Below are positions 5,777 through 58,614 of a stretch of 64,000 nt of DNA, piece by piece. Numbering within the stretch: position 1 is the first letter of the stretch; each line of letters begins with the position of its first letter. The position numbers were made by a program, and so were the translations under genes. Origin of the DNA: Pontibacter coccineus (GTDB lineage: Bacteria > Bacteroidota > Bacteroidia > Cytophagales > Hymenobacteraceae); assembly GCF_030546575.1 (NCBI RefSeq), contig NZ_JAUOTN010000007.1, forward strand, positions 186,001-250,000, in the 5' to 3' direction. The notes below the pieces were generated by a model, which was given only the letters and a program-made list of their open reading frames with translations, ran no database searches and was not told the DNA's origin.

Positions 5777-7231
5777 CTATAGATTATCCAACGGACTGAC
5801 AATTTTATCCAGCGCATGGGTGGTGATGTGGGTGTAGATCTCGGTGGTCTTGCTGCTCCGATGTCCTAGCAGCACCTGGATATACCTTAAATCTGTTCCT
5901 TGCTCCAGCAGGTGCGTGGCAAACGAATGGCGCAGGGTGTGTGGCGTGGCGGGTGCTTTCACGCCCGCCTTCTCCTTGCTGGCCCTGAACACGCTGCGAA
6001 TACTCTCCACCGTGTATTGCCCGCCCGTCTGCCCCTCAAAGAGCCACATCTTGGGCTTGTACTGTTTGTAATAAGCCCTCAAACTTTCAAGTAGCTTTTG
6101 GGAGAGCAGCGTGGTGCGGTCTTTCTTGCCTTTGCCGCCACGGATCAGCAGCAGGTTGCGCTCTGACTGCACGTCCGTCAGCTTCAGGTTGATCACTTCG
6201 CCAATACGCAGGCCTCCCGCATACAAAAGCTGCAGCATGCAGCGGTGCTTCAGGTTCTCGGTCACGGACAGGATTTTCAGCACGTCCTGCTTACTGAGCA
6301 CCTGCGGCAGTCGCTCGGGCTTTTCGGGCCGCTCCACCTGGCCCAGCTGCACCTCGTGCCGCAATAGCACGCGCTGGTAGTAGAACTTCACTGCATTGAT
6401 CGACTGGTTCACAAACGATACGGAATAGGTGCCGGCCTGCACCATCTGGCGGTGGTAGTGGTTGATGGCCTCTTCTGAAAAAGCATGTATGCCCTCCAGC
6501 CTGCTGTCCCTGTGCGCATTCAGAAAGCGCAGGAGTAGGCCATGATAGGTGCGGATGGTACTGAGGCTGTAGTTCAGCAGGAACAGCTTCTCCACGTAGT
6601 GAAGCGGACAGGCAATATAGCCGTCGCCCTTCTGATAACATTGTTCCCAGAGCCGGGCCTGCAGGGCCATGTCCTTTACCTGCATGGTCTGCGCCAGCCA
6701 TACCTGGGCTACCGCCTCCAGCTCCGTTAGAAGCTTGTGGAAACTATTGCTTTCGGGGTTGATGACAAAGCACTGCATGTCTTGCAGCCACGTGGCCACA
6801 TTGCTTTGCTTCAGGCAGGTATAGGTTTCCTTGTTGTATTGGTAGCTGAGTTGCACATACTGCCTGCCCTGGTGTTCCAGAGGCTGCAGGCGCACGACGG
6901 GACGTACAGGCACCTTTCCCAATGGTTCTGCCACCCGCCTGTCCTGTTGCAGGACAACGGCTCCTTCCGCCGGGCGCAGGCGCCTGGGCCGGTACAGGTA
7001 CTTTGTGTCCACCTTGGCCAGTCCCTGGAAGTGCTGATGCGTCATCTCAATAGCCTGGCTGCTACGGTGCATCACAAAGCACTTATAGGTTTTGCTGTAC
7101 TTAATCCAACCAGCCTCCTTCAGTCGTTTGGAGAGGAAGGGATTGGGCTTGTGCCAGATACGAATAAAAACACTACCTGCGTGCTCTAGCGGGTTCAGGT
7201 ACAAAATAGGTTGTCGATCGGGATAAGCCAT
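5777..7231 (-). CDS. Site-specific tyrosine recombinase with duplicated N-terminal module
   Basis: I start at the ATG at 7231 (484 residues); a further in-frame ATG at 7378 would cross the repeats upstream and the start of the divergent gene. The C-terminal catalytic domain is complete: R342 (GLRIGEV), a lysine in GGKGKKDR (367-370), H431-x-x-R434 (HTLRHS), H457 (LLGHRS) and nucleophile Y466 (EIYTHI). A core-binding SAM-like domain spans about 210-300. The first 180 residues hold two related modules (about 7-68 and 110-171), both with LxPLEHxG near the start and CFV near the end. The extra insertion of true integron integrases is absent, so this is Xer-like. It ends with VSPLDNL, and its last codons contain GTTGGAT, a perfect match to the GTTRRRY attachment core. 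The adjacent cassettes may be its substrate. Confidence 0.9.
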   Translation of the reverse strand: MAYPDRQPILYLNPLEHAGSVFIRIWHKPNPFLSKRLKEAGWIKYSKTYKCFVMHRSSQAIEMTHQHFQGLAKVDTKYLYRPRRLRPAEGAVVLQQDRRVAEPLGKVPVRPVVRLQPLEHQGRQYVQLSYQYNKETYTCLKQSNVATWLQDMQCFVINPESNSFHKLLTELEAVAQVWLAQTMQVKDMALQARLWEQCYQKGDGYIACPLHYVEKLFLLNYSLSTIRTYHGLLLRFLNAHRDSRLEGIHAFSEEAINHYHRQMVQAGTYSVSFVNQSINAVKFYYQRVLLRHEVQLGQVERPEKPERLPQVLSKQDVLKILSVTENLKHRCMLQLLYAGGLRIGEVINLKLTDVQSERNLLLIRGGKGKKDRTTLLSQKLLESLRAYYKQYKPKMWLFEGQTGGQYTVESIRSVFRASKEKAGVKAPATPHTLRHSFATHLLEQGTDLRYIQVLLGHRSSKTTEIYTHITTHALDKIVSPLDNL

Positions 7232-7292
7232 GGCAAATGAGACAGTTACTGAAGGCAAAGATAAAACCTTTCTAAACCGTAGCCGTGTTATT

Positions 7293-7334
7293 ACGCGAGT
7301 ATACACGGATATACGCGGGTATAAACGCGGGTAA
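7293..7334. repeat. Four 10-bp direct repeats between divergent recombinase and zinc-ribbon genes
   Basis: ACGCGAGTAT, ACACGGATAT and ACGCGGGTAT follow head to tail (7293-7322), then after two bases ACGCGGGTAA (7325-7334). The 10-bp period puts all copies on one face of the helix. They end three bases before the zinc-ribbon ATG and lie about 60 bases from the recombinase start. A regulator or recombinase arm site is plausible. Confidence 0.55.
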
Positions 7335-7337
7335 GTT

Positions 7338-7721
7338 ATGAGCCAAGCCAGAACATGCATCCAGTGCGGAACAGCCATTGTAGGCAGGAGCGATAAGCGC
7401 TACTGCTCTGACCCCTGCAGACACCTGGCCAACAATACGGTCAAGGTACAGAACCAACAGGAACGCAGGATTCTCCAAATCAATGCTGCATTAAGAAAAA
7501 ACCGCAGCATTCTCAAACAGCTCAGTCCACAGGGCAAGACCACCTTGCCCCGCCAGTACCTGGAGCTGGCAGGCTTTGATTTCCGCTACCTGACCCAAGT
7601 CTACCGCACCCAGAAGGGAAACACCTACCATCTCTGCTATGACTATGGGTATATGCTCCTGCCCGACGAAAAGGTGCTGATCGTGAACTGGCAGCCTTAC
7701 ATGGAGCAAAGCAAGGTATAG
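7338..7721 (+). CDS. Small zinc-ribbon protein divergent from the recombinase
   Basis: This 127-residue protein has an N-terminal zinc-binding cluster, CIQCGTAIVGRSDKRYCSDPCR, with CxxC then CSDPC spacing (cysteines at about 7, 10, 23 and 27). A basic helix rich in Q and R follows (about 37-60), then a soluble domain with several aromatic residues (GFDFRYLTQVY, YHLCYDYGYMLLP). It is divergent from the recombinase and shares the control region with its four repeats. It may be a DNA-binding accessory or regulator of the recombinase, but this rests on position only. The last codons, AAG GTA TAG, spell the octamer AGGTATAG, so the stop codon lies inside that motif. Confidence 0.7.
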   Translation: MSQARTCIQCGTAIVGRSDKRYCSDPCRHLANNTVKVQNQQERRILQINAALRKNRSILKQLSPQGKTTLPRQYLELAGFDFRYLTQVYRTQKGNTYHLCYDYGYMLLPDEKVLIVNWQPYMEQSKV

Positions 7722-7752
7722 GAAATCCTTTGCTCAGGTATAGCCAAACAGA

Positions 7753-7781: not shown

Positions 7782-7809
7782 CCGGTATTTCAGGTATAAG
7801 GTATAGCGC

Positions 7810-9287: not shown

Positions 9288-9566
9288 TTAAATAAGCGCT
9301 TTGTCGAGCATATCGCCTAGGTCGCTCACGCCTAAGGTGAACATGAACAACACGATGGCCAGCGCGATTTTGACGACCATAGGTATAGCGAAACCCAGGT
9401 GTCGCTTCAGGTAGGCATTTGCCGGAGGAAGATAGACAAGGGATAGAAGTAAGTAGGCTATACCTGGCACAGGATGCACCAACACCAGGTTCAGTACACC
9501 CACTGTTGCGACTACCAGGCCAAAAAACCAGCCGAGTAGGGGATAAGTTAAGGTTTGGGCTTTCAT
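9288..9566 (-). CDS. Small three-helix membrane protein, paralogue of the 95-residue neighbour
   Basis: From the ATG at 9566 the product is 92 residues (MKAQTLTYPLLGWFFG...). A longer in-frame start at 9629 would overlap the preceding gene. It has three hydrophobic helices. A mid-protein LLSLVYLPPANAYL and a tail GFAIPMVVKIALAI...LGVSDLGDMLDK match those of the 95-residue protein encoded 0.35 kb upstream, so the two are tandem paralogues. The family is not recognised. It lies last in a run of co-directional membrane-protein genes likely governed by the winged-helix regulator at 12.0 kb. Confidence 0.7.
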   Translation of the reverse strand: MKAQTLTYPLLGWFFGLVVATVGVLNLVLVHPVPGIAYLLLSLVYLPPANAYLKRHLGFAIPMVVKIALAIVLFMFTLGVSDLGDMLDKALI

Positions 9567-9577
9567 GACGCTACTGC

Positions 9578-11487: not shown

Positions 11488-11538
11488 GGGGCTATACCTT
11501 GGTTTATTTATCAAAGCCATCTGTAGTGTTGTGGTCGC

Positions 11539-12275: not shown

Positions 12276-12899
12276 CTAGCGTTCGTATTTAAAGTACACC
12301 AGCGCGCCATACACAATGTGCAACATGCCAAAACCCACCGTCCACAGCATCAGGCCATAGCCGACAAACACGCTGGCAACCAGGCCGAGGATAATTTCGA
12401 TGATGCCCAGGTAACGAATATCACCCAGGGTATACTTGCTGCCGTTGAGCAGGGCCAGACCATAGAAAATCAGCATGGCAGGTGCTACCAGGTATAGAAT
12501 GTTGTGGTATAGCAAGATGGCACAAAACACACCACCAGCAGCCAAAGGTATTGCCAGGTTCACCAGTAGCCGCTTCGATTGGTTGTCCCAGGTGCGTTGG
12601 TTCTTTTTGCGGGCATTGCGCGCTGTGAAATAGGTGGCCGTGCCAAAGGCCAGCACCATTACCCCAACCGCCACCGCCAATACAAAAAGAACGTCCTCAC
12701 GACGGAAGTTGCTGGCCAGGTCGTTGTAATAATTGATGTTGTGCTGGCTGAAGTACCACTTGACCACTGCCGCACCCAAAAGTGCTGACAAGCCTGCAAA
12801 TACACCGGACAACCCGCTCAGGGAGATAAAGCGGGATGAGCGATCCATGATGTTGCGGATCTCTTGCAGGGCTTCTAGCTGGTCTTGCTGCTGGTTCAT
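12276..12899 (-). CDS. Membrane protein co-transcribed with the winged-helix regulator
   Basis: The 207-residue protein has a soluble N-terminal helix (MNQQQDQLEALQEIRNIMDR) and about six membrane helices. A long loop (SQHNINYYNDLASNFRRED) follows the second helix, and a basic loop (NARKKNQRTWDNQSKR) sits mid-protein. No enzymatic motif is visible. The gene precedes the regulator in one operon, and a near-perfect palindrome lies 8-26 bases before its ATG. Its partner role, perhaps sensing or transport, is unknown. Confidence 0.75.
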   Translation of the reverse strand: MNQQQDQLEALQEIRNIMDRSSRFISLSGLSGVFAGLSALLGAAVVKWYFSQHNINYYNDLASNFRREDVLFVLAVAVGVMVLAFGTATYFTARNARKKNQRTWDNQSKRLLVNLAIPLAAGGVFCAILLYHNILYLVAPAMLIFYGLALLNGSKYTLGDIRYLGIIEIILGLVASVFVGYGLMLWTVGFGMLHIVYGALVYFKYER

Positions 12900-12925: not shown

Positions 12926-13243
12926 AATACAGGTTTACGTAAAGTCAAGCCTTGGGGCTAAATTATTTTGGAAATTTATGAGGTGATGGCATATCCGGAT
13001 TTATAGAATGTTTAGAGCAGAGGCCATGATATTTCGCTATTTCCCCCTGGCAAGGTATAGCATATGGCAACAAAGTCACTATGGCAGGTATAGCCGAATC
13101 AGCTATACCTTCAGAATCAATCACACCTACTCTAATCAACTATACCTGTCTCTGTCAACTATACTTGGAAACTAAAAGGCATTGGCCATATACCCAGGTA
13201 TACAGCCAATGCCTTGCAGGTATAGCGAGTGCTTTGTCTCAGA
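12926..13243. other. Intergenic stretch with clustered AGGTATAG octamers and a terminator
   Basis: No coding sequence is supported here. Five exact copies of AGGTATAG / CTATACCT lie at 13053, 13086, 13103, 13140 and 13218, with near copies at about 13160 and 13196. An 11-bp stem AAGGCATTGGC (13176-13186) / GCCAATGCCTT (13205-13215) followed on the minus strand by TTTTAG is the likely terminator of the cyanophycin/isoaspartyl peptidase unit. Confidence 0.6.
13176..13215 (-). terminator. Terminator of the isoaspartyl peptidase gene
   Basis: Perfect 11-bp arms with an 18-base loop. The minus-strand stem is followed by TTTTAG. It lies 28 bases after the peptidase stop codon. Confidence 0.6.
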
Positions 13244-14341: not shown

Positions 14342-16984
14342 TTAAAATGAATCCTGCTCGAGCGAGGAAATGTGCCGGTGCTGGATGATGCGGAAACTCT
14401 CCACCATTTTTACGGACTCCGGAATGTCTTCCGAGAACAGGGCGATGAAAGAGCCCTCCGGAGCATACTCCATGGCATGGGCCAGGGCGCGGCTCTCCTG
14501 GTTTATCTCCGTCACTTTCATGCCAGGCTTCACCGACATAATGCCCTGCTTGAGCAGGCCGTTGATCTCTTCTCCGGTTCTGCCGCGCAGGTCCTTGTCC
14601 TGCCGGATGATGATCTCGTCGAAGGTTTCGGCTGCAATACGTCCGATCTCGATCGTGTCTTCTTCCAGACGGTCGCCCACGCCCGCTATGATGCCAATCT
14701 TGTAGGAAGCGTGCACATTGTCGATGAAATCCGCGATGGCCTCCATGCTGGCAATGTTGTGGGCATAGTCGATGAGCACTTCGTAGCGCGGCAGCTTGAA
14801 GAGGTTCATGCGGCCAGGTGTAGTTTCGGCGGACGGGATAAACGTGCGCAGGGCAGTCCTGATCTCGGGTATTTCGAAGTGGTTGATATACCCGGCCAAG
14901 GTAGCTGCCAGCACGTTCTGGATGTTAAAGCGGGCACGGCCCCCAAAGGTCAGCGGGATGTCGGCCACGCGGTCCACTCTGATCTTGTAGGTGTTCTTGA
15001 AGATGGAGATATACCCGTTTTCGAGCACGGCGGCCAGTCCGCCTTTGCTGATGTGCTGCAGGATGCGCGGGTTGTTTTCGTCTAAACTAAAGAAAGCCAC
15101 TTTGCAGGAAAGCCCGGTCGCCATATCGTAAACCAGGTTATCGTCGGCATTGAGCACAGCATAGCCGTTCTGGCACACCGTACGAGGGATCACCGCCTTC
15201 ACATCAGCCATTTCCTCCACAGTGTTGATGTCTCCCAGACCCAGGTGGTCTGCCGACACGTTGGTCACGATGCCGATGTCACACTGCCGGAAGGCCAGGC
15301 CGGAGCGTAGCATACCTCCACGGGCACACTCCAATACGGCATAGTTCACCGTAGGATCTTTGAGCACAAACTCACTGCTGTAAGACCCGGTGGTATCGCC
15401 TTTGATGATCTTCTTATCCTGTATGTAAATACCGTCTGTCGTGGTATAGCCTACCTGAAAGCCCTTGAACTTGAGCATATGCGCCACCAGCCGGGTAGTG
15501 GTGGTCTTGCCGTTGGTGCCCGTGATGGCCACAATAGGTATACGGGTCGGGGTGCTGTGTGGGAAGAGCATGTTGATGATCGGCTCGGCCACGTTGCGGG
15601 GCAACCCCTCAGTCGGGGAAATGTGCATACGCAGCCCGGGAGCAGCATTCACTTCGATCACCGAGCCCCTTGTTTCGGGCAGCGGGATAGCAATGTCGCT
15701 TGTCATCACATCGATGCCGCAGACGTCCAGTCCGATGATACCGGCGATACGCTCGGCCATCAGCACATTGTAAGGGTGCACCAGGTCCGTTACGTCGGTG
15801 GCAGTGCCGCCTGTGCTGAGGTTAGCCGTACTTTTCAGGTATAGCACTTCGCCCGCAGGCAACACCGATTGCAGCGTCAGGCCTTTGTCTTTGAGCAGGC
15901 TGCGGGTATGCCTGTCTATTTTGATGTGCGTGAGCGCCTTTTCGTGGCCTATACCTCGCCGTGGGTCTTTGTTCACCTCCTTTACCAGCTGCTGTATGGT
16001 CGAGATGCCATTGCCGGTGACCATGGCGGGTGTGCGTCTGGCAGCGGCGGTGAACTTGCCATTGATGACCAGCAGGCGGTAATCGTCGCCGGTGATGAAC
16101 TGCTCCACCATTACCTTCTTCGAGAATCGCTGTGCCTCAGTCAGGGCGCGCATAGCCTCTTTCCAGGTGTTGATGTTGATGGTGGCGCCCTTTCCCTGGT
16201 TGCCGTCCAAGGGCTTAACTACTACAGGGTAGCCAAGTTCCTCTACTGCGGTTTCCAGTTCGTCTGCATCGATCACAATGCTGCCACGCGGCACCGGTAT
16301 ACCTGCCTCGTCCAGGATGAGCTTGGTGGCGTTTTTGTTACCGGCATTCTCAACAGCAAAAAAGGAGGTGCGGGACGTCATGGCAGCCTGTATGTGCTTT
16401 TGGTGGATGCCGTACCCCAGCTGGATAAGCCCGCTGCGAAGGTTGTTGATATAGGGTATACCTCTGTTCACGGCCTCCCTTACAATGGCCTCCGTGGTCG
16501 GGCCAAAATACTCATCCTCCCGGATCTGGTGCAGTTTAACGATGTCCTGCACAATACTCGGCTTCTTGCCTTTGGCCATCAGTTCGGCAATGCGCACCGC
16601 GGCGTGGGCCGCATACTCACCGGCGCGTTCCTGCTGGTAGGAAAACAGCACATAGTCCACACCCGGTGCAGGGCCGGCGTAGCGCCTTCCGTAGCCACTG
16701 TTCATGCCGGCCAGCGTTTGCAGCTCGAGCGCGATGTGCTGTACTACTTTGCTAAACGTGGTGCCTTCGCGCACGAGCTTGAAAAAACCACCAGGTGTAC
16801 CTTTGGAAGAGCGATGCTCATACATACCCGGGAAAAGCTTTTCCAGTCGCTCCGGAAATTGCGGTACTTCATTCGTGAGGACGTCCTGCAGGTTTTCCAG
16901 ATCGAGCTTCAGGACAATAATTTTAGGATGCTTGATGGACCAGTAGTTTGGTCCACGCATGATCCTCATTTCAAGTATTCTCAT
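14342..16984 (-). CDS. cphA: Cyanophycin synthetase
   Basis: This protein (880 residues from the ATG at 16984; an ATG three codons earlier is also possible) makes the storage polymer multi-L-arginyl-poly-L-aspartate. Three parts are visible. An N-terminal domain starts MRILEMRIMRGPNYWS. A central ATP-grasp domain contains YPVVVKPLDGNQGKGAT and EVNAAPGLRMH. A C-terminal Mur-ligase-like domain has the P-loop ITGTNGKTTTTRL and the LIDYAHN segment. The length matches CphA1 enzymes (about 875-900). It is followed by isoaspartyl peptidase. No cyanophycinase (cphB) gene lies in the window, so the first depolymerisation step must be encoded elsewhere or be done differently. Confidence 0.96.
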   Translation of the reverse strand: MRILEMRIMRGPNYWSIKHPKIIVLKLDLENLQDVLTNEVPQFPERLEKLFPGMYEHRSSKGTPGGFFKLVREGTTFSKVVQHIALELQTLAGMNSGYGRRYAGPAPGVDYVLFSYQQERAGEYAAHAAVRIAELMAKGKKPSIVQDIVKLHQIREDEYFGPTTEAIVREAVNRGIPYINNLRSGLIQLGYGIHQKHIQAAMTSRTSFFAVENAGNKNATKLILDEAGIPVPRGSIVIDADELETAVEELGYPVVVKPLDGNQGKGATININTWKEAMRALTEAQRFSKKVMVEQFITGDDYRLLVINGKFTAAARRTPAMVTGNGISTIQQLVKEVNKDPRRGIGHEKALTHIKIDRHTRSLLKDKGLTLQSVLPAGEVLYLKSTANLSTGGTATDVTDLVHPYNVLMAERIAGIIGLDVCGIDVMTSDIAIPLPETRGSVIEVNAAPGLRMHISPTEGLPRNVAEPIINMLFPHSTPTRIPIVAITGTNGKTTTTRLVAHMLKFKGFQVGYTTTDGIYIQDKKIIKGDTTGSYSSEFVLKDPTVNYAVLECARGGMLRSGLAFRQCDIGIVTNVSADHLGLGDINTVEEMADVKAVIPRTVCQNGYAVLNADDNLVYDMATGLSCKVAFFSLDENNPRILQHISKGGLAAVLENGYISIFKNTYKIRVDRVADIPLTFGGRARFNIQNVLAATLAGYINHFEIPEIRTALRTFIPSAETTPGRMNLFKLPRYEVLIDYAHNIASMEAIADFIDNVHASYKIGIIAGVGDRLEEDTIEIGRIAAETFDEIIIRQDKDLRGRTGEEINGLLKQGIMSVKPGMKVTEINQESRALAHAMEYAPEGSFIALFSEDIPESVKMVESFRIIQHRHISSLEQDSF

Positions 16985-17322: not shown

Positions 17323-18216
17323 ATGGCACGAGATTATCAGGATGACTATGGTAGTGGCGATTACCGCTCCCACCAGGAGAACCAGGGGTTTTTTGACCGA
17401 ATAGGCGATAAAATCAGCAATGCATGGGAGCGTATAAGAGGCGATGAGGACGAGCGGCGTCAAAGTCGCAGTGCGCATTACCCTTATTCAGGAGAAAGTG
17501 ATCGCGGAGGCTACCGCTCGTCGGCTTACGGTTCGGGGGATTCAGCAGGCCATGAGCAGGACACCCGTTACGGGCAGTCACAGATGGGCAGGTATAGCCC
17601 GCAGCGCTCCGAAGGCAGCAGGTATGGAGACACCTCCCGATCCGGGCAAGGCTGGAGCAGCAGCGGTTACAGCGGACGTATGTCTGATTACGGAAGTTCC
17701 TCGCAGCAGCACGGCCAGTCGCAGGGCGGAGGCGGTTATGGCAGTTCGCAGGGTTATGGCCACACTTCGTCTCAGGGTAGCGGCTATGGACAAAGCGGTT
17801 CTCCTTACGGAGCAGGCGCCAGCGGCGGTGAGTACGGCGCTTCCGATCCGGCAAACTATGGCAGCACCCAGCGCGACTACGGCAGCTCTTCTGGCTACGG
17901 GCGTAGTTCTATGGGCTTCCCGCGCGGTTCTGATTATGGCAGTGGCGGATCCGGCTCTATGGGTGGCGGCTATTTCGGGAGTGGGGCAGGACCCTGGAGC
18001 GGCGGACCTTACGGCGAAACCGGCACCGCGGGCTACAGAGCGGACAGCGGTTCGCAGCGAGGCATTGGCGGCAACTCCGGCCTGAGCCAACAGGGAAGGA
18101 GCGGACACATGGGCAGCGCAGGCGGCTACAGTAGCTCTGACTATGATTATTCCCGCCGGGAGCAGTGGCGCCGGGGCCATCCGGACCAAAGCTACGGCAG
18201 TGACCGGGACCGATAA
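17323..18216 (+). CDS. Gly/Ser/Tyr-rich low-complexity protein
   Basis: This 297-residue protein has no recognised domain. The first 50 residues contain an amphipathic segment GFFDRIGDKISNAWERIRG followed by an acidic-basic stretch. The remaining 240 residues are of prion-like composition: repeated [G/S]-Y-[G/S] units (YGSS, SGYG, DYGS), Q, and scattered R, with hardly any aliphatic residues. This resembles the FUS-type sequences that drive phase separation in eukaryotes; I know of no assigned bacterial function. Codons are varied, and an open frame on the opposite strand is only a compositional shadow. It is a single-gene unit with its own AT-rich promoter region and a strong shared terminator. 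The SWFGD-type stress proteins of Hymenobacteraceae are a possible relation. Confidence 0.75.
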   Translation: MARDYQDDYGSGDYRSHQENQGFFDRIGDKISNAWERIRGDEDERRQSRSAHYPYSGESDRGGYRSSAYGSGDSAGHEQDTRYGQSQMGRYSPQRSEGSRYGDTSRSGQGWSSSGYSGRMSDYGSSSQQHGQSQGGGGYGSSQGYGHTSSQGSGYGQSGSPYGAGASGGEYGASDPANYGSTQRDYGSSSGYGRSSMGFPRGSDYGSGGSGSMGGGYFGSGAGPWSGGPYGETGTAGYRADSGSQRGIGGNSGLSQQGRSGHMGSAGGYSSSDYDYSRREQWRRGHPDQSYGSDRDR

Positions 18217-19758: not shown

Positions 19759-19868
19759 TTCGCTAAAAAGAAAAGCATAGGCAAGCGCGTCTGCCCGCAG
19801 AAGAGCCATCTCAAAGTTGATTTCAGGTATAGCAGCGCTCCGTGCCTGCGGTATTTTCGTATCTTGAG

Positions 19869-27985: not shown

Positions 27986-28084
27986 TCAGATCAGTTTGGT
28001 TTAGTCACCAAATATAAGGGAAATGTAGGTATAGCGCCTCGCCTATACCTGAACAACAGGTATAGGTCAGGGCTTTGGGGATCG

Positions 28085-33628: not shown

Positions 33629-33684
33629 GGGAAAGGGTTTAGGTATAATGTTCGGGTGCTCGGGGCGCTCTTCTTAGGTATAGC

Positions 33685-37525: not shown

Positions 37526-37585
37526 TGCAGGGTTAAGGCTACTGAAAGCGGCTATACCTGAACCACTCTTATATAATATGGAGAT

Positions 37586-40840: not shown

Positions 40841-40865
40841 AAATTTCACCTTAAACCAAACAAGG

Positions 40866-43884: not shown

Positions 43885-43887
43885 ACC

Positions 43888-44743: not shown

Positions 44744-44951
44744 TTTACAGGATCTAGGCTTTTTGCAACTGTTACAGGAGATGCTCTACTTCCTTGCCTA
44801 ATGCTTCAGGTAGAAGGTATAGTGCTGAAAATTAAGCTATAAGAATGTGCTGGTTGACGTCAGCAATAACCTCCAAATCAAACCGAAGGACCTATGGTGC
44901 GTACACAATCGCAGTATTGTTTAACAGTAATCCAACTTAACCACCAAAACT

Positions 44952-47550: not shown

Positions 47551-47565
47551 GATTAGCTGATTGTG

Positions 47566-47608: not shown

Positions 47609-47632
47609 ATACCTCCTCACTAAAGGTAAAAG

Positions 47633-48214: not shown

Positions 48215-48230
48215 CCCGAAAATCTACGAC

Positions 48231-50653: not shown

Positions 50654-50656
50654 GCC

Positions 50657-51424
50657 ATGAACAAGATCATCAAATACGTTTTGTATGATATCGTGCGCAG
50701 CAAGATCGTTGTCGCTTATACCTTGTTTCTGCTCTTGCTCTCGATCGGGTTGTTCAACCTGGGCGGCAGCGCCGACAAGGGCCTGCTGAGCCTTTTGAAC
50801 CTGGTGCTGCTGACCGTGCCGCTGATCAGCATCGTCTTTGCCACCACCCACTTCTACAACTCCTATGAGTTCATGGAGCTGCTGGTCTCCCAACCCATCC
50901 GGCGCAGCAAGATCTTCCTGAGTGAGTACCTGGGCGTGTCCCTCTCGCTGTCTGCCGCCTTTCTGATCGGGGTGGGTATACCTGTGCTGCTGTTCGCTCC
51001 CGGGGCCACGGGGCTGTACCTGGTGCTGACGGGGGTGTTCATCACCTTCATCTTCGTAGCCCTGGCCTTTCTGGCCTCGGTCATCACCAGAGATAAGGCC
51101 AAAGGTATAGGTATAGCCCTGATGCTGTGGTTTTACTTTGCCCTGATCTACGACGGCATCGTGCTCTTTATCCTCTACTCCTTCGGCGACTACCCGCTCG
51201 AGTACGCCACCCTGGCGCTCACGGCCCTCAACCCGGTGGACCTGGGCAGGGTGATGGTGCTCTTAAACCTGGACGTTTCGGCCATGATGGGCTACACGGG
51301 CGCTCTCTACAAGAGCATCTTCGGCAGCGGCTGGGGCGTGGGTATTGCCTTTCTAATACTCGTGCTCTGGGTGCTCGTGCCGCTGCTGATCTCCAGAAGG
51401 GCCTTCATCAAAAGAGACTTGTAG
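50657..51424 (+). CDS. nosY: NosY ABC transporter permease (copy 2)
   Basis: 255 residues; the same as copy 1 except for about six positions, five of them in the last 30 residues (FLILVLWVLVPLLISRRAFI against FVVLVLWVLVPLLTSRRVFQ). The DNA is almost identical from about the second codon block to near the end. It is the last gene of cluster 2 and is followed by a strong terminator. Confidence 0.95.
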   Translation: MNKIIKYVLYDIVRSKIVVAYTLFLLLLSIGLFNLGGSADKGLLSLLNLVLLTVPLISIVFATTHFYNSYEFMELLVSQPIRRSKIFLSEYLGVSLSLSAAFLIGVGIPVLLFAPGATGLYLVLTGVFITFIFVALAFLASVITRDKAKGIGIALMLWFYFALIYDGIVLFILYSFGDYPLEYATLALTALNPVDLGRVMVLLNLDVSAMMGYTGALYKSIFGSGWGVGIAFLILVLWVLVPLLISRRAFIKRDL

Positions 51425-52363: not shown

Positions 52364-54169
52364 CTATACCTTCTGATTGGCCACTTGCAACTGATCTTCG
52401 GCCTCCAATAATTCATCCAGTAGCAGCATGCGCTTCTCCAACTGGTCTTTGAAAAGGGTCGGCACTAGTTCCTTGTAATAAGCGATGCCATGCTGCAGGT
52501 TCTGCCAGAAATTCTGCAGGTATTTTTCCTGCTTATCGGTCATGGTTTCCTGCAGTTCGGCCTTCTTGTTTTTCCAGTATTGCACGTACATAGTAAGCTC
52601 GTTGATGAACACATGCGGACGATAGGTGTTGTTCAACACATTCACACGGCCGTAGATATGGTCGACCATCTCCTGCAGCTTGAAAATGTTGGAGAAGTAA
52701 GCCAGGTTCGGACCCGGGCAAATGGCAACCGGACGTGAAGCAACGGCCTTGCGGCTGATGCCAAACTTTAACAGGGCGGTGTTGGCCAGGCCTTCGCAGA
52801 GGCATTCTTTTTCCAGCACTTTGGCTTCTGCCGCTTTGTATTCGGCTTCCGGCATGCCCATACCTTGCAGCTCTACCAGTTTGTTGCGCTGGTACTTGCG
52901 GGAGGCCGTGCAGATGGGCTCTTTGGTGAACTCAGTGTTGGACACCAGGTGCTTCTTTTCGCAGGGACTGCCTGGTTTGCCTTTTTCGATACGCGCCAGC
53001 GTAAGCGCCTCGGAACTGGTGCCGCGCATGGAATTAAAAGGCACACCAAGTGGGGAGATCGGGCTCAGGTATAGGTCTTCTTTTTTGGCACGCGCCAGCT
53101 TTTCCATGGTTTCCGCGTCGACGGTTGTGGCTTCAGGAACGAGCAAAAACGGAGTGCCCCAACCTGCGGCGTCCATGCCGTAGTGCTCCAGCAAAAAGTT
53201 ATGCTCATCTGATGTGCCGATGCCGCCCTGCACGGTGATGTGCATAGTGGGCGCAGTTTCAGGTATAGTGTATCCTTTGGCCGCAAGGTTTGCGCTGAAC
53301 AAGGTATAGAGCTCGTCCTGCATGGTCTGTCGGTTTTGTTTGAATTCTTCCAGGATCGGTCCGAGCAAATAGCCGTCTGTAGCAAAGGCGTGGCCGCCAC
53401 AGTTCAAACCAGATTCAATGCGGAATTCCGATACCCAGATGCCTTTTTTAGCCAGGATCTTGCCCTGCACGAAAGCCGAGCGGTAGTCGCTCACTTTGAT
53501 CACCACCTGTTTTTGCAGAAAGCCATTTTTGTCGGGGAAGAAGCAAGGGAACTGCTCGAGGTAGCTGTAGAGACGCATGTTCATACCGGCCGAGAAAATC
53601 ACCGAAGCATGTACCGTGCTTTTGGCAAAACCACGCAGTGCGGCCAGCGCGTCGGAGTACTCGGATGGCAGCGGGTTGCCGTCTTTGTCGTAATTGGTTT
53701 TGTCGAGCTTGGTCATGATGTTCACATCGATGCTGCCCGGCACCACGGCATGGCGCAACTCGTCCTGCATGATCTTTTTCAGCTCCGGGTTACTGGTCTG
53801 CAGCATTTTTCTGTACATCGCCTTCAACGGGGCATTGTCTGGCAGCAGCAAAAAATACTTGGTCAGGCGCGACTCCGAATCAAAGGGCTCTTGTTTCAGC
53901 GCCTGTACCTGGAGTTTCACGATGCGGTCGGCCAGGTTGAGGTAGGCCGTAATGCGACGGGCGCGGTAGTCTTCTTCTTTCTGCGAGATCGGCGTGAACG
54001 GCTCCTGGTATACCTGGCTGTAATACTCACGCATCTGCTCGATCAGCGTATCGTCGCTGAGCGAGACAACCGAAGAGATGCCATACTGCGCCACTTTCAT
54101 AGGCGAGTCGATGGAAAAGGCCAGGCCCATTACCGGGATGTGGAAGGTGTGCGGTGTGTTTTTGATCAT
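52364..54169 (-). CDS. Conserved uncharacterised protein, possibly a TIM-barrel flavoenzyme
   Basis: From the ATG at 54169 the protein is 601 residues (MIKNTPHTFHIPVMGLAFSI); a start at 54226 is possible. It has no signal peptide. The start IPVMGLAFSIDSPMKVAQYG and the middle SGLNCGGHAFATDGYLLGPI look like nitronate-monooxygenase or glutamate-synthase-type FMN barrels, and HITVQGGIGTSDEHNF resembles a phosphate-binding loop. A cluster of cysteines (ICTASRKY, ECLCEGLANTALLKFG) in the last third may hold a metal or cluster. I recall this protein as conserved but uncharacterised in Bacteroidota. The gene is co-transcribed with queD. Confidence 0.7.
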   Translation of the reverse strand: MIKNTPHTFHIPVMGLAFSIDSPMKVAQYGISSVVSLSDDTLIEQMREYYSQVYQEPFTPISQKEEDYRARRITAYLNLADRIVKLQVQALKQEPFDSESRLTKYFLLLPDNAPLKAMYRKMLQTSNPELKKIMQDELRHAVVPGSIDVNIMTKLDKTNYDKDGNPLPSEYSDALAALRGFAKSTVHASVIFSAGMNMRLYSYLEQFPCFFPDKNGFLQKQVVIKVSDYRSAFVQGKILAKKGIWVSEFRIESGLNCGGHAFATDGYLLGPILEEFKQNRQTMQDELYTLFSANLAAKGYTIPETAPTMHITVQGGIGTSDEHNFLLEHYGMDAAGWGTPFLLVPEATTVDAETMEKLARAKKEDLYLSPISPLGVPFNSMRGTSSEALTLARIEKGKPGSPCEKKHLVSNTEFTKEPICTASRKYQRNKLVELQGMGMPEAEYKAAEAKVLEKECLCEGLANTALLKFGISRKAVASRPVAICPGPNLAYFSNIFKLQEMVDHIYGRVNVLNNTYRPHVFINELTMYVQYWKNKKAELQETMTDKQEKYLQNFWQNLQHGIAYYKELVPTLFKDQLEKRMLLLDELLEAEDQLQVANQKV

Positions 54170-54425: not shown

Positions 54426-55619
54426 TCACAATCCCCGCCGCTTTATCTCCGCCTCCAGCAAGCTCAACTCGCGGCCCATTTGCCCGGCGATGGACGTGTT
54501 TTCCTCCGCTCTCCTGATCATATAAGGCAGGGTGGTGGCCACGTCGCCGTAAGGCAGGTATTTGGAGGCGTTGAAACCGGCGCTGGCCAGGTTGTAGGTC
54601 AGGTTGTCGCTCATGCCGTAGAGTTGCGAAAAGTGGATGCGCTTTTGGTGGTCGGCTATACCCTGGCGGTTGATCTGGTTGACGAGGTAGCGGGTGCTGG
54701 ATTCGTTGTGCGTGGCGGCGCAAAGCTCCACACGGTGCAGGTTTTGCAGACAGATGTCGATGGCCCCGTCAAAGCTGCGGTCGGTATCGGCCTTGATATG
54801 GAAGACCGGGCTCGGGTAACCATGTTCGACGGCACGTTCCTGTTCTTTCTCGATGTAGGCGCCGCGCACGATCTTTATCCCCAGAATCACGTCGTAGCCT
54901 TCGCTTCGCTTGAGCAAATCGGTGAGGTAGGCAATACGGTCGGTGCGGTACATCTGCAGCGTGTTGAAAACGACGGCGCGGCGCTCGTTGTAGCGCAGCA
55001 TCATCTTTTCGGCCAGTTCGTCCATAGGCTGCTGCAGCCAGGTCTCCTCGGCGTCGATGTAAACGGTGATATTGGCTTCGTAAGCAGCCTTGCAAATTAT
55101 ATCCAGGCGACTCTCTGTACGCTGGAAAGCGGCCTGTTCTTGTGTAGTCAGCACTTCGCCTTCCTGCAGTTTCTGGAAAATATCACGGGAGCCTATACCT
55201 GTCAGTTTCACGCTGATGTAGGGAATCTCGCCTGTAACTTTTGCCAGCCGGATGTTGCGCATGATCTCGTCGAGTACGTGGTCAAACCCGGCTTCGTCTT
55301 CCTTGGCTTCGGCGGCATAGTCGAGCACGGTGTATACCCTGGCGTTGGCCATGCGGCGAATGGCACGTTGGGCTTCCTGTGCTGTTTCGCCTCCGCAGAA
55401 GTGGCTGTAAATGGTGCCTTTCACGAGGCCCTTGATCGGAAGCCCCAGCTTAAGCGCCCAGACCGAGGCCACGCCGCCCAGCTTCACTAAAGTAGGTTTG
55501 CCCATCATCTTAAAGAGGAAGTGGGCGAGCTTGAGCTCCTTGTCCGTTTTGTTACTGAAGGCGATCCTCAGGTCGTTCGGGTCGAAAGTGCTGGTCGGTT
55601 GTATAGTTGTCGTACTCAT
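54426..55619 (-). CDS. Proline dehydrogenase family protein
   Basis: This 397-residue protein shows the PRODH barrel: YISVKLTGIGSRD, VYIDAEETWLQQP, VVFNTLQMYRTDRIAYL, LGIKIVRGAYIEKEQ, CAATHNESSTRYLV and QLYGMSDNLTYNL, then the C-terminal YLPYGDVATTLPYMIRRAEEN with the substrate-carboxylate-binding arginines. It oxidises proline to pyrroline-5-carboxylate with FAD, passing electrons to the quinone pool. It is a monofunctional form, without the P5C dehydrogenase half of PutA. It is a single-gene unit, upstream of the long inverted repeat. Confidence 0.94.
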   Translation of the reverse strand: MSTTTIQPTSTFDPNDLRIAFSNKTDKELKLAHFLFKMMGKPTLVKLGGVASVWALKLGLPIKGLVKGTIYSHFCGGETAQEAQRAIRRMANARVYTVLDYAAEAKEDEAGFDHVLDEIMRNIRLAKVTGEIPYISVKLTGIGSRDIFQKLQEGEVLTTQEQAAFQRTESRLDIICKAAYEANITVYIDAEETWLQQPMDELAEKMMLRYNERRAVVFNTLQMYRTDRIAYLTDLLKRSEGYDVILGIKIVRGAYIEKEQERAVEHGYPSPVFHIKADTDRSFDGAIDICLQNLHRVELCAATHNESSTRYLVNQINRQGIADHQKRIHFSQLYGMSDNLTYNLASAGFNASKYLPYGDVATTLPYMIRRAEENTSIAGQMGRELSLLEAEIKRRGL

Positions 55620-55858
55620 GTATGTGGCAATTCTTTAGATGAAAGTATTTCTAATTCAGGTATAGCGGTTTGTTTGGTCGGCAAGATGCAGCGAAAAATA
55701 CCCTCATTAAGGTATGGCCCAGGACTGGTGTAGCTGGCAAATGAGCGTATGGACCACCAATTAACCGATGCAACATGGCTGGTAGATTTGAGCTTGGATG
55801 AAGGCACAAGTTAGTCCTGTTTCCATGCTGTGGAAATGAGCATAGTTAGTCTAAATAG

Positions 55859-55991: not shown

Positions 55992-56672
55992 ATGAACACC
56001 CCCGATATACTCACCCCCGAACTTATCAATCCGCTGACCTATCAGAGTTACAGACTGCTGGTGGAGCAACTGGTGGCTGATAACATGACTACAGGCCCGG
56101 AGCAGACCGAAGAACGCATCGCCTTCACCAAACTCAATCTGCAGCGCATGAAGCGTGTGGAGAAACAGTTCAAAATAGACCCTGAACTGTTGGGGGCCCT
56201 GCAACAGCCGCGTCCGGAGTGGCATTGGGTGGTGCTGTTGGAGTCGTGGTGCGGGGACGGAGCGCAGCAGATGCCGGCTTTGGCCGCCATTGCCGACGCC
56301 GTGCCGACGATCGAGCTGACCGTTATTCTGCGGGATGAAAACCCGGCCTGGATGGACACCTGCCTCACCAACGGCAGCCGCGCTATACCTAAGCTGATCT
56401 GTTTGAACGCTGAAACGAATGAGCGACTCTTCACATGGGGGCCGCGGCCGCTGGCGATACTCGAGGAGGTGCTGCAGTTTAAGGAGAAACACCCAAATGC
56501 GGCGAAAGAAGACATCCATACACTGGTGCATACCCTGTATGCCAAAGACCGCAGCCAGTCCTTGCAGCAGGATTTGCTACGGCTGGTGCTAGGCGCTATA
56601 CCTGTAACGGGGGAGGAAGAGTCGTTAAGTTCTGCCGACAACTATCCCCTTGAGGGGATTATAGGGGTGTAA
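55992..56672 (+). CDS. Thioredoxin-fold protein with WCGD motif
   Basis: The 226-residue protein has a thioredoxin-like domain (about 75-165): VVLLESWCGDGAQQMPALA and AIPKLICLNAETNERLFTWG with a cis-proline. The usual CxxC is replaced by C-G-D-G, so only one cysteine remains; this form is common in thioredoxin-like proteins of Bacteroidota. It is cytoplasmic. The C-terminus (NYPLEGIIGV and stop codon) is encoded by the left end of a dispersed repeat element, so the original end has been replaced. Promoter sites place it in the nitrogen-oxide regulon. Confidence 0.82.
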   Translation: MNTPDILTPELINPLTYQSYRLLVEQLVADNMTTGPEQTEERIAFTKLNLQRMKRVEKQFKIDPELLGALQQPRPEWHWVVLLESWCGDGAQQMPALAAIADAVPTIELTVILRDENPAWMDTCLTNGSRAIPKLICLNAETNERLFTWGPRPLAILEEVLQFKEKHPNAAKEDIHTLVHTLYAKDRSQSLQQDLLRLVLGAIPVTGEEESLSSADNYPLEGIIGV

Positions 56673-56807: not shown

Positions 56808-56874
56808 ACCCTGGGGAGGAAGAGAAGGTACTGTCTTAAAATCCATTTTCAATCAATAAATAGATATAAGTCTT

Positions 56875-57315
56875 ATGAAACTAATGATCATCGCGATTTT
56901 CCTGGCCAGTTTAACCTCCATGTGCGGAACTGAGCGCGACATGGAAACAGAACATACCGAAGTGGTGCATGAAGAGCAAACGCTTGCCCTGAACGGCACC
57001 GAGCGCTGGAAAGCCGACGAGCCAATCAACCGCCACATCGCCCAGTTGCAAGGTATGGTGCAGGAATTTAACGCACAGGCCGAGAACAACTCGGCAGCCG
57101 CTTACAACGATTTGGGCACTTCGATGAAGGCGGAAATGCAGGGACTCTTCAAAGACTGCCGCATGAAAGGCCCCGCCCATGACATGCTGCACGTATACCT
57201 GATGCCGCTGGTGGAGGACGTGAACCTGTTAGACGGCAACGACGAACACCAGTCTGAAGCAGCCTTCACTCGTGTAAATGAGCGGCTGAAGGCATTCAAC
57301 CAGTACTTTGAATAA
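56875..57315 (+). CDS. Small lipoprotein in the thioredoxin-like/HCO-like unit
   Basis: The 146-residue precursor has a lipoprotein signal (FLASLTSMC). The mature part is helical and charged (EQTLALNGTERWKADEPINR, HIAQLQGMVQEFNA), with one further cysteine and nearby histidines (KDCRMKGPAHDMLHVYLMP). The family is unknown; the C, H and M residues could bind metal or heme, by inference. It ends 3 bases before the membrane protein gene, so the two are tightly linked. Confidence 0.72.
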   Translation: MKLMIIAIFLASLTSMCGTERDMETEHTEVVHEEQTLALNGTERWKADEPINRHIAQLQGMVQEFNAQAENNSAAAYNDLGTSMKAEMQGLFKDCRMKGPAHDMLHVYLMPLVEDVNLLDGNDEHQSEAAFTRVNERLKAFNQYFE

Positions 57316-57318
57316 ACG

Positions 57319-58614
57319 ATGAAAGAGGTTAGGGAGAGGCTGCAGCAGTTACCACAAACGGGACATGATACCCTGGTGCGGGCACGCATCGCATTGGGTT
57401 ATTTGGTGCTAGTGGCTATGCTGGGCCTTTTCCTGCGCTGGCTCATGGTGTCGCCTGTAGACGGCGTCAACTTTAAATACTTCCTGCACGCGCACTCGCA
57501 TGTGGCCTTGCTGGGTTGGCTCTACTGCGCTTTTTTTGCGGCCCTGCTTTACATTTTTCCGGCGGTTACTGGCGCGGCACGCACCTCTTTCCGACGGCAG
57601 TTTTTCCTGACACAGGTCTCGGTGCTGGGCATGCTGTTCACCTTCCCGGTGCAGGGCTATGCACTTTTCTCCATCATCTTCTCGACGATGCACATCCTGC
57701 TCAGCTACTGGTTTGCCCGCAGCTACTGGAAGCATGTGCAACTTAATGTAGATCTTAACACGCACGCCACTTCGCTGAAATACATCGGTACGGCTTTGCT
57801 GTTCATGGTGGTGTCTTCCATTGGTCCCTGGGCCATGGGGCCGATCATGGCGAAGGGCACGATTGGCGGCGAACTCTACTACTCGGCCATCTATTTTTAC
57901 CTGCACTTCCAGTACAACGGTTGGTTTACCTTTGCCGTGCTCGGCTTGCTGTTCTGGTTTCTGGAGCGTAACCAAATCGACTTCAACCGCCACTGGGCCA
58001 TGCGGGCTTTCTGGATGCTGGCTTTGGCTTGTCTACCTGCCTATGCGCTCTCGGTGCTCTGGACAAAACCGGCGGACTGGGTATACTCCGTCGGGTATGT
58101 GTCGGTGGCCATGCAGCTGGCGGGGCTGCTATACCTTATAAAAGTAGTACGGCAGGTATGGGCAGAAACCGTGCTTTTGCTGAAGCCCTGGGTGCGGGCG
58201 CTGGTAGGTATGGCGCTGTTCTTTTTTGTGCTGAAACTGGCCTTGCAAACGGCCTCCGCTTTCCCGTACATGGCGGATCTGGCCTACAAACTCCGCTACT
58301 TCATCATCGGCTACCTGCACCTGTCGCTGCTCGGTTTTGTGTCGCTCTTCGTGCTGGGCTTCCTGCTGCAGCAAAACCTCTACCGACTCGGCCGGTATGG
58401 CGGTATCGGGCTGACGCTTTTTCTGGCCGGCTTCTTTGCTACGGAATTAATGCTGTTCGGGCAGGGCACTTTGCTCTGGCTCGGGCTGACGGCTTTGCCG
58501 AGTTTCAACTGGCTGATGTTCTGGGCGAGTGTGCTGATGCCGCTGGGGCTGGGGCTGCTTTTTCTGGGTCAGCGGGGGTTGAGGGTGAGTGGGTTGAGGA
58601 GGATTGGCACTTGA
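57319..58614 (+). CDS. Heme-copper-oxidase-like polytopic membrane protein
   Basis: The 431-residue protein has about twelve membrane helices, the count of heme-copper oxidase subunit I. Histidine-rich helices include KYFLHAHSHVALLGWLY (about 53-70), YFYLHFQYNGWF and FIIGYLHLSLLGF. The HAHSH segment recalls the HAHTALFG helix of qNOR. Known catalytic ligand sets are not fully matched, so it may be a divergent oxidase/NO reductase homologue or a heme-binding relative such as NnrS. It is last in a unit whose promoter carries the TGAC-N4-GTCA sites, in favour of a role in nitric oxide metabolism or defence. Its last 20 residues are basic. The final AGGTATAG octamer of the window (58129) lies in this gene. 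Confidence 0.75.
   Translation: MKEVRERLQQLPQTGHDTLVRARIALGYLVLVAMLGLFLRWLMVSPVDGVNFKYFLHAHSHVALLGWLYCAFFAALLYIFPAVTGAARTSFRRQFFLTQVSVLGMLFTFPVQGYALFSIIFSTMHILLSYWFARSYWKHVQLNVDLNTHATSLKYIGTALLFMVVSSIGPWAMGPIMAKGTIGGELYYSAIYFYLHFQYNGWFTFAVLGLLFWFLERNQIDFNRHWAMRAFWMLALACLPAYALSVLWTKPADWVYSVGYVSVAMQLAGLLYLIKVVRQVWAETVLLLKPWVRALVGMALFFFVLKLALQTASAFPYMADLAYKLRYFIIGYLHLSLLGFVSLFVLGFLLQQNLYRLGRYGGIGLTLFLAGFFATELMLFGQGTLLWLGLTALPSFNWLMFWASVLMPLGLGLLFLGQRGLRVSGLRRIGT

What the first reader, a model, noticed from the sequence alone, without database searches (positions are those of the whole stretch)
6817..58136. Hugely over-represented octamer AGGTATAG, absent from both accessory flanks
About 65 exact copies occur in 51 kb where about two are expected, on both strands and in all frames, often inside genes where it forces the rare Ile codon ATA (for example GGT ATA GCC). 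It even forms a stop codon (7714-7721). It is missing in the cassette region and the AT-rich polysaccharide locus. This resembles HIP1, uptake sequences or Chi-like signals, but I know of no description for this lineage. Selection on DNA sequence is likely.
Basis: partly seen in the sequence, partly recalled or inferred. Interest (0 to 1): 0.82.

Follow-up and report, generated by a model that had tools for sequence, protein, structure and literature searches.

The report
Pontibacter genome-wide DNA word with dialects
The eight-letter DNA word AGGTATAG is written thousands of times in this Pontibacter genome, related species use altered spellings of the same word, and some have lost it, which suggests a self-recognition signal, most likely for taking up DNA, in a group of bacteria in which the pilus normally used for that job was not found.

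Summary
The window has 67 exact AGGTATAG (1.3 expected), none in its two accessory flanks; the genome has 4,844 against 96 for the reversed word. Synonymous-codon shuffling gives 8 coding copies where 164 are found. The word is one dialect of a Pontibacter system: by thresholds 12 of 50 genomes carry AGGTATAG, 20 AAGTATAA, 4 AACTATAG, 3 both of the latter, 11 none. TATA is constant and dialects follow the rpoB tree. None of 285 genomes elsewhere in the order shows it. Sites outlast same-composition controls (62% against 38% kept), prefer intergenic DNA and are scarce in two of three second replicons sampled. I read it as a DNA-uptake-sequence-like self mark (0.6). ComEC, DprA and a ComEA-like protein occur throughout the genus but no pilus ATPase was found, so its reader would be new. 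Against: nine genomes without a clear word keep these genes intact, and two genomes with broken ComEC keep a full dose. No receptor was found; uptake was not tested.

The parts
6817..58136 (.). Span of the window that carries the AGGTATAG sites (67 sites, GC 0.53)
1..6816 (.). Motif-free flank, GC 0.42, adjoining a tyrosine integrase gene
5777..7378 (-). Tyrosine recombinase (Phage_integrase) gene at the edge of the motif-free flank
   Evidence: PF00589, 1.2e-40
58137..64000 (.). Motif-free flank, GC 0.38, with sugar transferase and polysaccharide lyase genes
6817..6824 (+). AGGTATAG
7714..7721 (+). AGGTATAG; its TAG ends ORF 7338-7721
7736..7743 (+). AGGTATAG
7799..7806 (+). AGGTATAG
9381..9388 (+). 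AGGTATAG
9458..9465 (-). AGGTATAG
11492..11499 (-). AGGTATAG
12490..12497 (+). AGGTATAG
13053..13060 (+). AGGTATAG
13086..13093 (+). AGGTATAG, inverted pair with 13103
13103..13110 (-). AGGTATAG, inverted pair with 13086
13140..13147 (-). AGGTATAG
13218..13225 (+). AGGTATAG
15837..15844 (+). AGGTATAG
15949..15956 (-). AGGTATAG
17590..17597 (+). AGGTATAG
19825..19832 (+). AGGTATAG
20482..20489 (-). AGGTATAG
20508..20515 (-). AGGTATAG
20967..20974 (+). AGGTATAG
21049..21056 (+). AGGTATAG
21068..21075 (+). AGGTATAG
21326..21333 (-). AGGTATAG
21787..21794 (-). AGGTATAG
22098..22105 (+). AGGTATAG
22539..22546 (-). AGGTATAG
22716..22723 (+). AGGTATAG
22998..23005 (-). AGGTATAG
23741..23748 (-). AGGTATAG
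24843..24850 (-). AGGTATAG
27112..27119 (+). AGGTATAG
27196..27203 (-). AGGTATAG
27502..27509 (-). AGGTATAG
27745..27752 (-). AGGTATAG
28027..28034 (+). AGGTATAG, part of an intergenic inverted-repeat triplet
28043..28050 (-). AGGTATAG, part of an intergenic inverted-repeat triplet
28058..28065 (+). AGGTATAG, part of an intergenic inverted-repeat triplet
29718..29725 (+). AGGTATAG
29966..29973 (+). AGGTATAG
30616..30623 (+). AGGTATAG
30798..30805 (+). AGGTATAG
31987..31994 (+). AGGTATAG
33330..33337 (-). AGGTATAG
33676..33683 (+). AGGTATAG
35878..35885 (+). AGGTATAG
37083..37090 (+). AGGTATAG
37552..37559 (-). AGGTATAG
38394..38401 (+). AGGTATAG
40022..40029 (-). AGGTATAG
41216..41223 (+). AGGTATAG
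41672..41679 (-). AGGTATAG
42107..42114 (+). AGGTATAG
44334..44341 (+). AGGTATAG, overlapping tandem (period 6) with 44340
44340..44347 (+). AGGTATAG, overlapping tandem with 44334
44815..44822 (+). AGGTATAG
45155..45162 (+). AGGTATAG
51103..51110 (+). AGGTATAG, same local context as 44334
51109..51116 (+). AGGTATAG, same local context as 44340
52364..52371 (-). AGGTATAG
53067..53074 (+). AGGTATAG
53261..53268 (+). AGGTATAG
53302..53309 (+). AGGTATAG
55193..55200 (-). AGGTATAG
55658..55665 (+). AGGTATAG
56383..56390 (-). AGGTATAG
56596..56603 (-). AGGTATAG
58129..58136 (-). AGGTATAG

Best explanation
AGGTATAG is the local dialect of a Pontibacter-wide self-recognition word of the form NNN-TATA-N. 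It most likely works like a DNA uptake sequence: a surface DNA receptor of a natural-transformation system prefers fragments with the word, so alleles carrying it are imported and recombined more often and accumulate across the core genome on both strands. When the receptor's specificity shifts, the thousands of sites are slowly rewritten into a new dialect. When specificity is lost, the sites decay. Shown here: the hyper-abundance, the dialects, the restriction to Pontibacter among the genomes searched, maintenance above controls, turnover mostly by point mutation, scarcity in the accessory DNA sampled, and presence of ComEC, DprA and a ComEA-like helix-hairpin-helix protein without a recognisable pilus ATPase. 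Inferred: that uptake is the process, that a receptor reads the word, and that this receptor is not a type IV pilin.
For: Abundance: 4,844 copies in 4.66 Mb, about one per kb. Dialects with a constant TATA: counts, tree (9 label changes against a shuffled mean of 26.2). Three mixed genomes, G012, G014 and G045, carry both AAGTATAA and AACTATAG and lie inside the AACTATAG clade. Named species show the same split. Short words: flanks of the AGGTATAG and AAGTATAA forms are informative for about one base on each side; AACTATAG extends two to three bases further. Intergenic share 112 of 276 against 18% expected; density highest in convergent spacers (3.6 per kb against 0.8 in genes); opposed pairs within 60 bp 20 against 9 in random placement. 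Sites kept between G025 and G004 64 of 103 (62%) against 38% of 531 control sites. Absent from both accessory flanks and 0 and 1 copies in 20-kb samples of two of three second replicons. ComEC in 50 of 50, DprA in 50 of 50, the ComEA-like HHH protein in 50 of 50, broken copies counted. In G020 all three are broken, the motif is at 2,537 copies against 4,006 in G024, and decayed one-mismatch copies are raised: 86 against 66.7, P 0.013, the expectation using a relic rate of 0.15 per perfect site that I took from G025, G011 and G004 (0.11 to 0.19) and leaving out the tolerated change A7 to G. Pilus-free transformation exists in the phylum: Riemerella needs ComEC, DprA, ComF, RecA, an HHH protein and unfamiliar surface proteins (PMC8459023: abstract, sections 19-20 and passages), and R. 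columbina was reported to prefer its own DNA (PMC7965970: passages and section 16).
Against: Searches found no paper on uptake sequences or natural competence in Pontibacter, and no uptake assay could be run. No receptor was found: the DUF5689 lead gave a SusC/D partner and secreted nucleases where scanned. The nine genomes without a clear word (G008, G013, G016, G027, G029, G033, G036, G037, G047) keep unbroken ComEC, DprA and HHH genes, so loss of the word is not loss of those genes. ComEC is broken in G040 and, in its last quarter, in G038, yet both have a full dose (5,041 and 8,208). G047, sister of G020 on the tree, has lost the word with the three genes intact, so the decay in G020 may have begun before its competence genes broke. 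Core one-mismatch copies are few per perfect copy, fewer than I recall for Haemophilus. Only one 20-kb sample per second replicon was read, and the largest, G001:C2 (204 kb), carries the word at chromosomal density.
Confidence: 0.6

Rival explanations
1. A HIP1-like genome word: a short site kept abundant by an unknown chromosome-maintenance or methylation-linked process, unrelated to DNA uptake.
For: Genome-wide, on both strands, depleted in accessory DNA, lineage-limited. The AACTATAG dialect often extends to the palindrome AACTATAGTT (78 strand counts, that is 39 sites, against 1.6 strand counts expected). Broken competence genes in G040 and G038 do not lower the count.
Against: The main words AGGTATAG and AAGTATAA are not palindromes. 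Dialect change within one genus with mixed genomes, and terminator-like inverted pairs, fit uptake sequences better.
Confidence: 0.2
2. Self mark read by a DNA-modification or nuclease system: a methyltransferase or nuclease specificity protein recognises the word, and DNA without it is restricted or less well kept.
For: Dialect-specific recognition with a fixed core would suit a changing target-recognition domain; accessory DNA lacks the word.
Against: Restriction usually leads to avoidance, not accumulation, of sites (established knowledge, recalled). No candidate gene was searched for here.
Confidence: 0.11
3. Chi-like recombination hotspot of AddAB or RecBCD.
For: Octamer length, core-genome placement. 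A weak strand excess, 156 against 120 in 250 kb (P 0.035).
Against: The strand excess is small and goes with gene orientation (101 antisense, 63 sense; 38% of coding bases on plus). Plus-strand density over the first 325 and 218 kb of contig 1 of G001 and G002 is 1.1 and 0.9 of the genome mean (my arithmetic on the capped listing). Enrichment of 22 to 88 times over the reversed word in unmixed genomes, apart from half-dose G020 at 13, and loss in several lineages, are unlike Chi as I recall it.
Confidence: 0.05
4. Codon or composition artefact, or copies of a mobile repeat.
For: None beyond a partly rare-codon context.
Against: Synonymous shuffles give 7.9 against 164; little conservation beyond the word; the reversed word is at background.
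Confidence: 0.01

Closest known systems
DNA uptake sequence (DUS) dialects of Neisseriaceae (PMC3630211, abstract and passages seen)
   Same: Thousands of copies per genome (1,543 to 3,770 in the passages seen), eight spellings distributed in line with the core-genome tree, a short invariant core (CTG there, TATA here).
   Different: Here 8 bp, phylum Bacteroidota, no type IV pilus ATPase found, uptake untested, several lineages with no clear word.
Uptake signal sequence (USS) of Pasteurellaceae (PMC12616744 and PMC7811141, search listing with start of abstract only; the rest recalled)
   Same: Abundant short word; a second subtype (Apl-USS) is named in a passage of PMC3630211.
   Different: A type IV minor pilin is proposed as its receptor (title); sequence unrelated.
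HIP1 of cyanobacteria (recalled; one search found one paper, listing only)
   Same: Octamer at very high genome-wide density, no accepted mechanism.
   Different: HIP1 is a palindrome, and I recall no such spread of spellings within one genus.
Chi sites (recalled)
   Same: Octamer of the core genome.
   Different: No strong orientation bias seen in the stretches looked at, and much higher enrichment.
Pilus-free transformation of Riemerella (PMC8459023, PMC7965970; abstract of the first, sections and passages of both)
   Same: Same phylum; ComEC, DprA and an HHH protein needed, no pilus homologues; own-DNA preference reported for R. columbina.
   Different: Its listed top k-mers are A/T-rich runs, with no comparable word; its surface gene pair was not recognised in Pontibacter by the one family search made.

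Membership tests
DNA uptake sequence (DUS/USS) | One short word far above chance across the genome, both strands | tested here: met
   4,844 against 96; shuffles
DNA uptake sequence (DUS/USS) | Lineage dialects that follow phylogeny with a fixed core | tested here: met
   rpoB protein only, 15 of 47 inner branches weak, labels by thresholds set after seeing the counts
DNA uptake sequence (DUS/USS) | Frequent in intergenic inverted repeats near gene ends | tested here: met
   112 of 276 intergenic, convergent spacers densest, opposed pairs 20 against 9. Same-strand pairs are even more in excess (54 against 9), about a quarter of them period-6 overlaps, which is not a known DUS feature to me
DNA uptake sequence (DUS/USS) | Scarce in recently acquired DNA | tested here: met
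   0 in two flanks; 0 and 1 per 20 kb in two small second replicons, but 10 per 20 kb in a 204-kb one
DNA uptake sequence (DUS/USS) | Natural-transformation genes in the genome | tested here: met
   ComEC, DprA and HHH protein in 50 of 50; broken: ComEC in G020, G040, G038, DprA in G020 and G040, HHH in G020
DNA uptake sequence (DUS/USS) | Sequence-specific uptake or binding shown | not testable with these tools
   Needs an uptake assay
DNA uptake sequence (DUS/USS) | Receptor is a type IV minor pilin (the only confirmed kind that I know, ComP) | tested here: not met
   No convincing PF00437 hit in 50 genomes; best 25.9 bits over about 60 residues of the P-loop. Pilins and secretin were not searched. 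If a pilin receptor is made part of the definition, this is not a DUS, only DUS-like
HIP1 | Palindromic word | tested here: not met
   AGGTATAG and AAGTATAA are not palindromes; AACTATAGTT is frequent in one dialect
Chi | Strong orientation along the replichore | tested here: inconclusive
   156 plus, 120 minus in 250 kb; origin not mapped
Restriction-modification site | Methylated word and matching methyltransferase | not tested
   No methylome; methyltransferase genes not surveyed

The most novel reading that the evidence does not exclude
Pontibacter has a pilus-independent, sequence-specific DNA uptake system with its own word and at least three clear dialects plus two loose ones (TATATA-like in G035, GGTATA-like in G041). 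It would be the first uptake-sequence system in Bacteroidota that I know of, read by an unknown class of surface DNA receptor, with transitional genomes and several independent losses caught in one genus.
Probability: 0.45. Interest if true: 0.92.

Novelty: new variant of a known kind. Interest (0 to 1): 0.82.

Why it matters
Uptake sequences are documented, as far as I recall, in two proteobacterial families that use type IV pili. A third, unrelated case in Bacteroidota without a pilus would show that the phenomenon arises with other receptors. It would give a genus with old, switched, mixed and lost dialects in which to watch specificity and thousands of genomic sites change together, and it would point to the unidentified outer-membrane DNA receptor of Bacteroidota. 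It also has a practical side: donor DNA carrying the right word might make these environmental bacteria genetically tractable.

Tried and rejected
Codon bias, base composition and a mobile repeat were tested and rejected. High-order Markov models were set aside as circular. The reversed-word control is imperfect: AACTATAG, for example, stands at about half its reversed word in the AGGTATAG genomes.

DUF5689 as a marker of the Riemerella surface pair: 22 of 50 genomes hit, 12 with proteins of 413-450 residues and 10 with about 1,100-1,300, motif-rich and motif-less genomes both among them. One short-type locus was scanned (G000) and lies beside SusC/SusD-type genes; four others have neighbours of like size but were not scanned. 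Three long ones were scanned and carry nuclease and secretion domains. Dropped.

Genome size: the 11 genomes without a motif by threshold are larger (mean 5.7 Mb) than the other 39 (mean 4.6 Mb; Mann-Whitney P 2e-6), but only 3 to 5 independent pairs exist on the tree and the sign test cannot reach 0.05. Not claimed.

A first check of G020 for general gene decay counted stops upstream of start codons and shadow frames; it was replaced: 29 genes compared in G020, 25 without a break; broken are ComEC, the HHH gene and two small reading frames without a Pfam match. DprA was seen apart. For G040 only 4 control genes were compared, all unbroken; it is a draft of about 100 contigs, so its breaks may be sequencing errors.

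Site turnover in the rpoB regions of the 12 AGGTATAG genomes: 132 of 234 site comparisons kept against 92.5 expected, summed over non-independent pairs with at least 8 kb aligned; closely related pairs there had too few sites to judge.

Paper searches, all ten: the word itself (539 papers, 20 listed, none of the 20 about it), Pontibacter with uptake sequence (none), Pontibacter with natural competence (none), uptake sequences with overrepresented, Bacteroidetes and motif (none). 'Not in print' rests on these, in an open-licence library only.

Thresholds for dialect labels (AGG over 1,300, AAG over 1,900, AAC over 1,900) were set after seeing the counts. G020 counts as AAG although at half dose; G035 and G041 count as 'none' although they have loose TATA words.

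Full report
WHAT IS THERE. The window carries 67 exact AGGTATAG, 41 plus and 26 minus; dinucleotide shuffles give 1.31 on average and at most 4. None lies in 1-6816 or 58137-64000, which have GC 0.42 and 0.38 against 0.53 between them; about 16.6 were expected there. A tyrosine integrase gene (5777-7378) sits at the first edge, and sugar-transferase and polysaccharide-lyase genes lie in the second flank. Context around the sites is uninformative except for about one base on each side (C at -1, C or G at +1), so this is a word, not a repeat element. In 250 contiguous kb that include the window, single changes in GGTAT are mostly near background, while the last two positions and the first tolerate change (A7 to G 59 against 12; G8 to C 114 against 12, to A 75 against 9.5; A1 to G 34 against 5.6).

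GENOME AND GENUS. The window lies in contig 10 of a 4.66-Mb genome with 4,844 copies against 96 for the reversed word. Its nearest named relatives by one protein are Pontibacter sp. HSC-36F09, P. virosus and P. lucknowensis. Across the 50 genomes of the genus the counts are bimodal: 12 have 2,823 to 5,222 copies, the rest 173 to 833. De novo counting of 8-mers in named 21-kb loci gave the reason: P. mangrovi, P. chinhatensis and P. vulgaris are full of AAGTATAA, P. populi and P. fetidus of AACTATAG; P. diazotrophicus shows none in its one locus. The two new words were then counted in all 50 genomes.

DIALECTS ON THE TREE. On an rpoB protein tree the 12 AGGTATAG genomes form one group (SH-aLRT 91); the 7 genomes with AACTATAG form another (99), and 3 of them, G012, G014 and G045, also carry 2,125 to 4,476 AAGTATAA, as transitional genomes would. 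AAGTATAA without AACTATAG marks 20 genomes spread over the tree and may be the older form. Eleven genomes pass no threshold; the best tree needs five changes of that label and the well-supported branches force at least three. De novo counting in 100 kb shows that two of them have looser words, TATATA-like in G035 and GGTATA-like in G041, while G008, G013, G037 and G047 show no dominant word of this kind in 80 kb each. G016, G027, G029, G033 and G036 were examined in 40 kb each; G016 keeps 1,201 AAGTATAA, 4.8 times its control. TATA is constant in all forms. Labels rest on thresholds set after seeing the counts.

BEYOND THE GENUS. AGGTATAG reaches no comparable count in 150 genomes of other genera of the family. 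The degenerate word ARSTATAR was run on 291 genomes of the order: of the 285 outside Pontibacter none stands out like the dialect-bearing Pontibacter; the highest ratio to control, about 2.4, is in a small genome of family f21. This does not exclude unrelated words in those groups, and the rest of the phylum was not scanned.

SELECTION OR DRIVE. Shuffling synonymous codons within the called genes of 250 kb gives 7.9 motifs on average (maximum 16) where 164 are found. Between G025 and the outgroup G004, 64 of 103 aligned AAGTATAA sites are kept, against 38% of 531 control sites of the same letters; all four comparisons that involve the outgroup agree (62-68% against 32-38%). For the close pair G025 and G011 the difference is small (80 and 83% against 76 and 70%). 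Sites that could not be aligned were set aside (50 of 153 for G025 against G004). In the close pair 34 of 47 unshared aligned sites differ by one base, and sites are both gained and lost. In the window's own neighbourhood 24 of 52 site comparisons with three relatives are kept against a background of 25-34%. Sites are thus maintained above neutrality but turn over.

PLACEMENT. In 250 kb, 112 of 276 sites are intergenic against 18% of sequence; density per kb is 3.6 in convergent, 2.5 in codirectional and 1.6 in divergent spacers and 0.8 in genes. Gene calls came from a simple codon model of mine. Opposed neighbours within 60 bp number 20 against 9 expected; same-strand neighbours number 54 against 9, about a quarter of them period-6 overlaps. 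Strand counts are 156 and 120 (P 0.035), in line with gene orientation. In 20-kb samples of second replicons the AAGTATAA count is 0 (G002:C2, 116 kb), 1 (G019:C2, 74 kb) and 10 (G001:C2, 204 kb); the genome means per 20 kb are about 14, 21 and 9. The large replicon therefore carries the word at chromosomal density.

WHICH MACHINERY. None of the 50 genomes has a convincing type II/IV secretion ATPase; the best hits are about 60 residues around a P-loop. Broken copies: ComEC in G020, G040 and, by a frameshift near residue 540 outside the Pfam domain, G038, while the other 47 have open frames of 702 to 736 residues; DprA in G020 and G040; the HHH protein in G020 only. G020 is the one genome with all three broken; it has 2,537 AAGTATAA against 4,006 in G024, and more one-mismatch core copies than expected from maintained genomes (86 against 66.7, P 0.013, with a relic rate that I took from three other genomes). 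Twenty-five of 29 genes compared in G020 are unbroken, so it is not simply a poor assembly. This ties the word to transformation, but weakly: G040 and G038 have a full dose, and G047, the sister of G020, has lost the word with all three genes intact. The nine genomes without a clear word keep the three genes, and so do G035 and G041.

HOW IT MOST LIKELY WORKS. I propose a surface receptor that prefers DNA carrying the word, biased import and recombination that enrich it, dialect change when the receptor's preference shifts, and decay when preference is lost while transformation as such may persist. The last point would explain intact com genes in genomes without the word. Riemerella, in the same phylum, transforms without pilus homologues, using ComEC, DprA, ComF, RecA, an HHH protein and unfamiliar surface proteins (PMC8459023), and R. 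columbina was reported to prefer its own DNA although only A/T-rich k-mers were listed (PMC7965970). My single attempt to find the Riemerella surface pair in Pontibacter (DUF5689) led, where scanned, to a nutrient-uptake locus and secreted nucleases. The receptor remains unknown. All steps of the mechanism beyond the statistics of the word and the gene inventory are inference.

KNOWN OR NEW. The resemblance to the DUS dialects of Neisseriaceae is close: several spellings, a fixed core, congruence with the tree, thousands of copies (PMC3630211, abstract and passages). It fails the one receptor feature that I could test, a pilus ATPase. I therefore call it DUS-like, not a DUS, and a new variant of a known kind. 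None of the ten searches made in the paper library showed it described.

Noticed in passing
G001 contig 1, 1944098-1946633 (not in the window): A run of at least 39 AGGTATAG spaced 64 to 69 bases apart in an AAGTATAA genome, looking like the repeats of a CRISPR array (the listing stops there).
   Followed up: no
window 38757-44655 and 45514-51424: Two adjacent gene blocks of matching layout; the first has nosZ-type, NosL, NosD and ABC transporter genes, the second was not scanned. They share motif sites in the same local context (44334 and 51103). Looks like a tandem duplication of a nitrous oxide reductase cluster.
   Followed up: no
window 33685-35985: A NorB-type nitric oxide reductase gene near the nos block.
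   Followed up: no
G020 contig 1: ComEC, DprA and the HHH protein are all broken in this single-contig genome, with two further small broken reading frames near the HHH gene: looks like a natural loss of transformation genes.
   Followed up: partly
AACTATAG genomes (L187, L202, L008, L012 and others): This dialect often extends to the palindrome AACTATAGTT, 78 strand counts against 1.6 expected; the palindromes of the other two dialects are less in excess (22 against 2.6 and 20 against 4.4).
   Followed up: partly
L103 (G035), e.g. 1315-1380, 5244-5300, 6200-6260: TATATA words of G035 lie in inverted repeats that resemble terminators (listing).
   Followed up: no
genomes G008, G013, G016, G027, G029, G033, G035, G036, G037, G041, G047: Genomes without the word by threshold are larger on average than those with it, but the tree offers too few independent pairs to test it.
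   Followed up: partly
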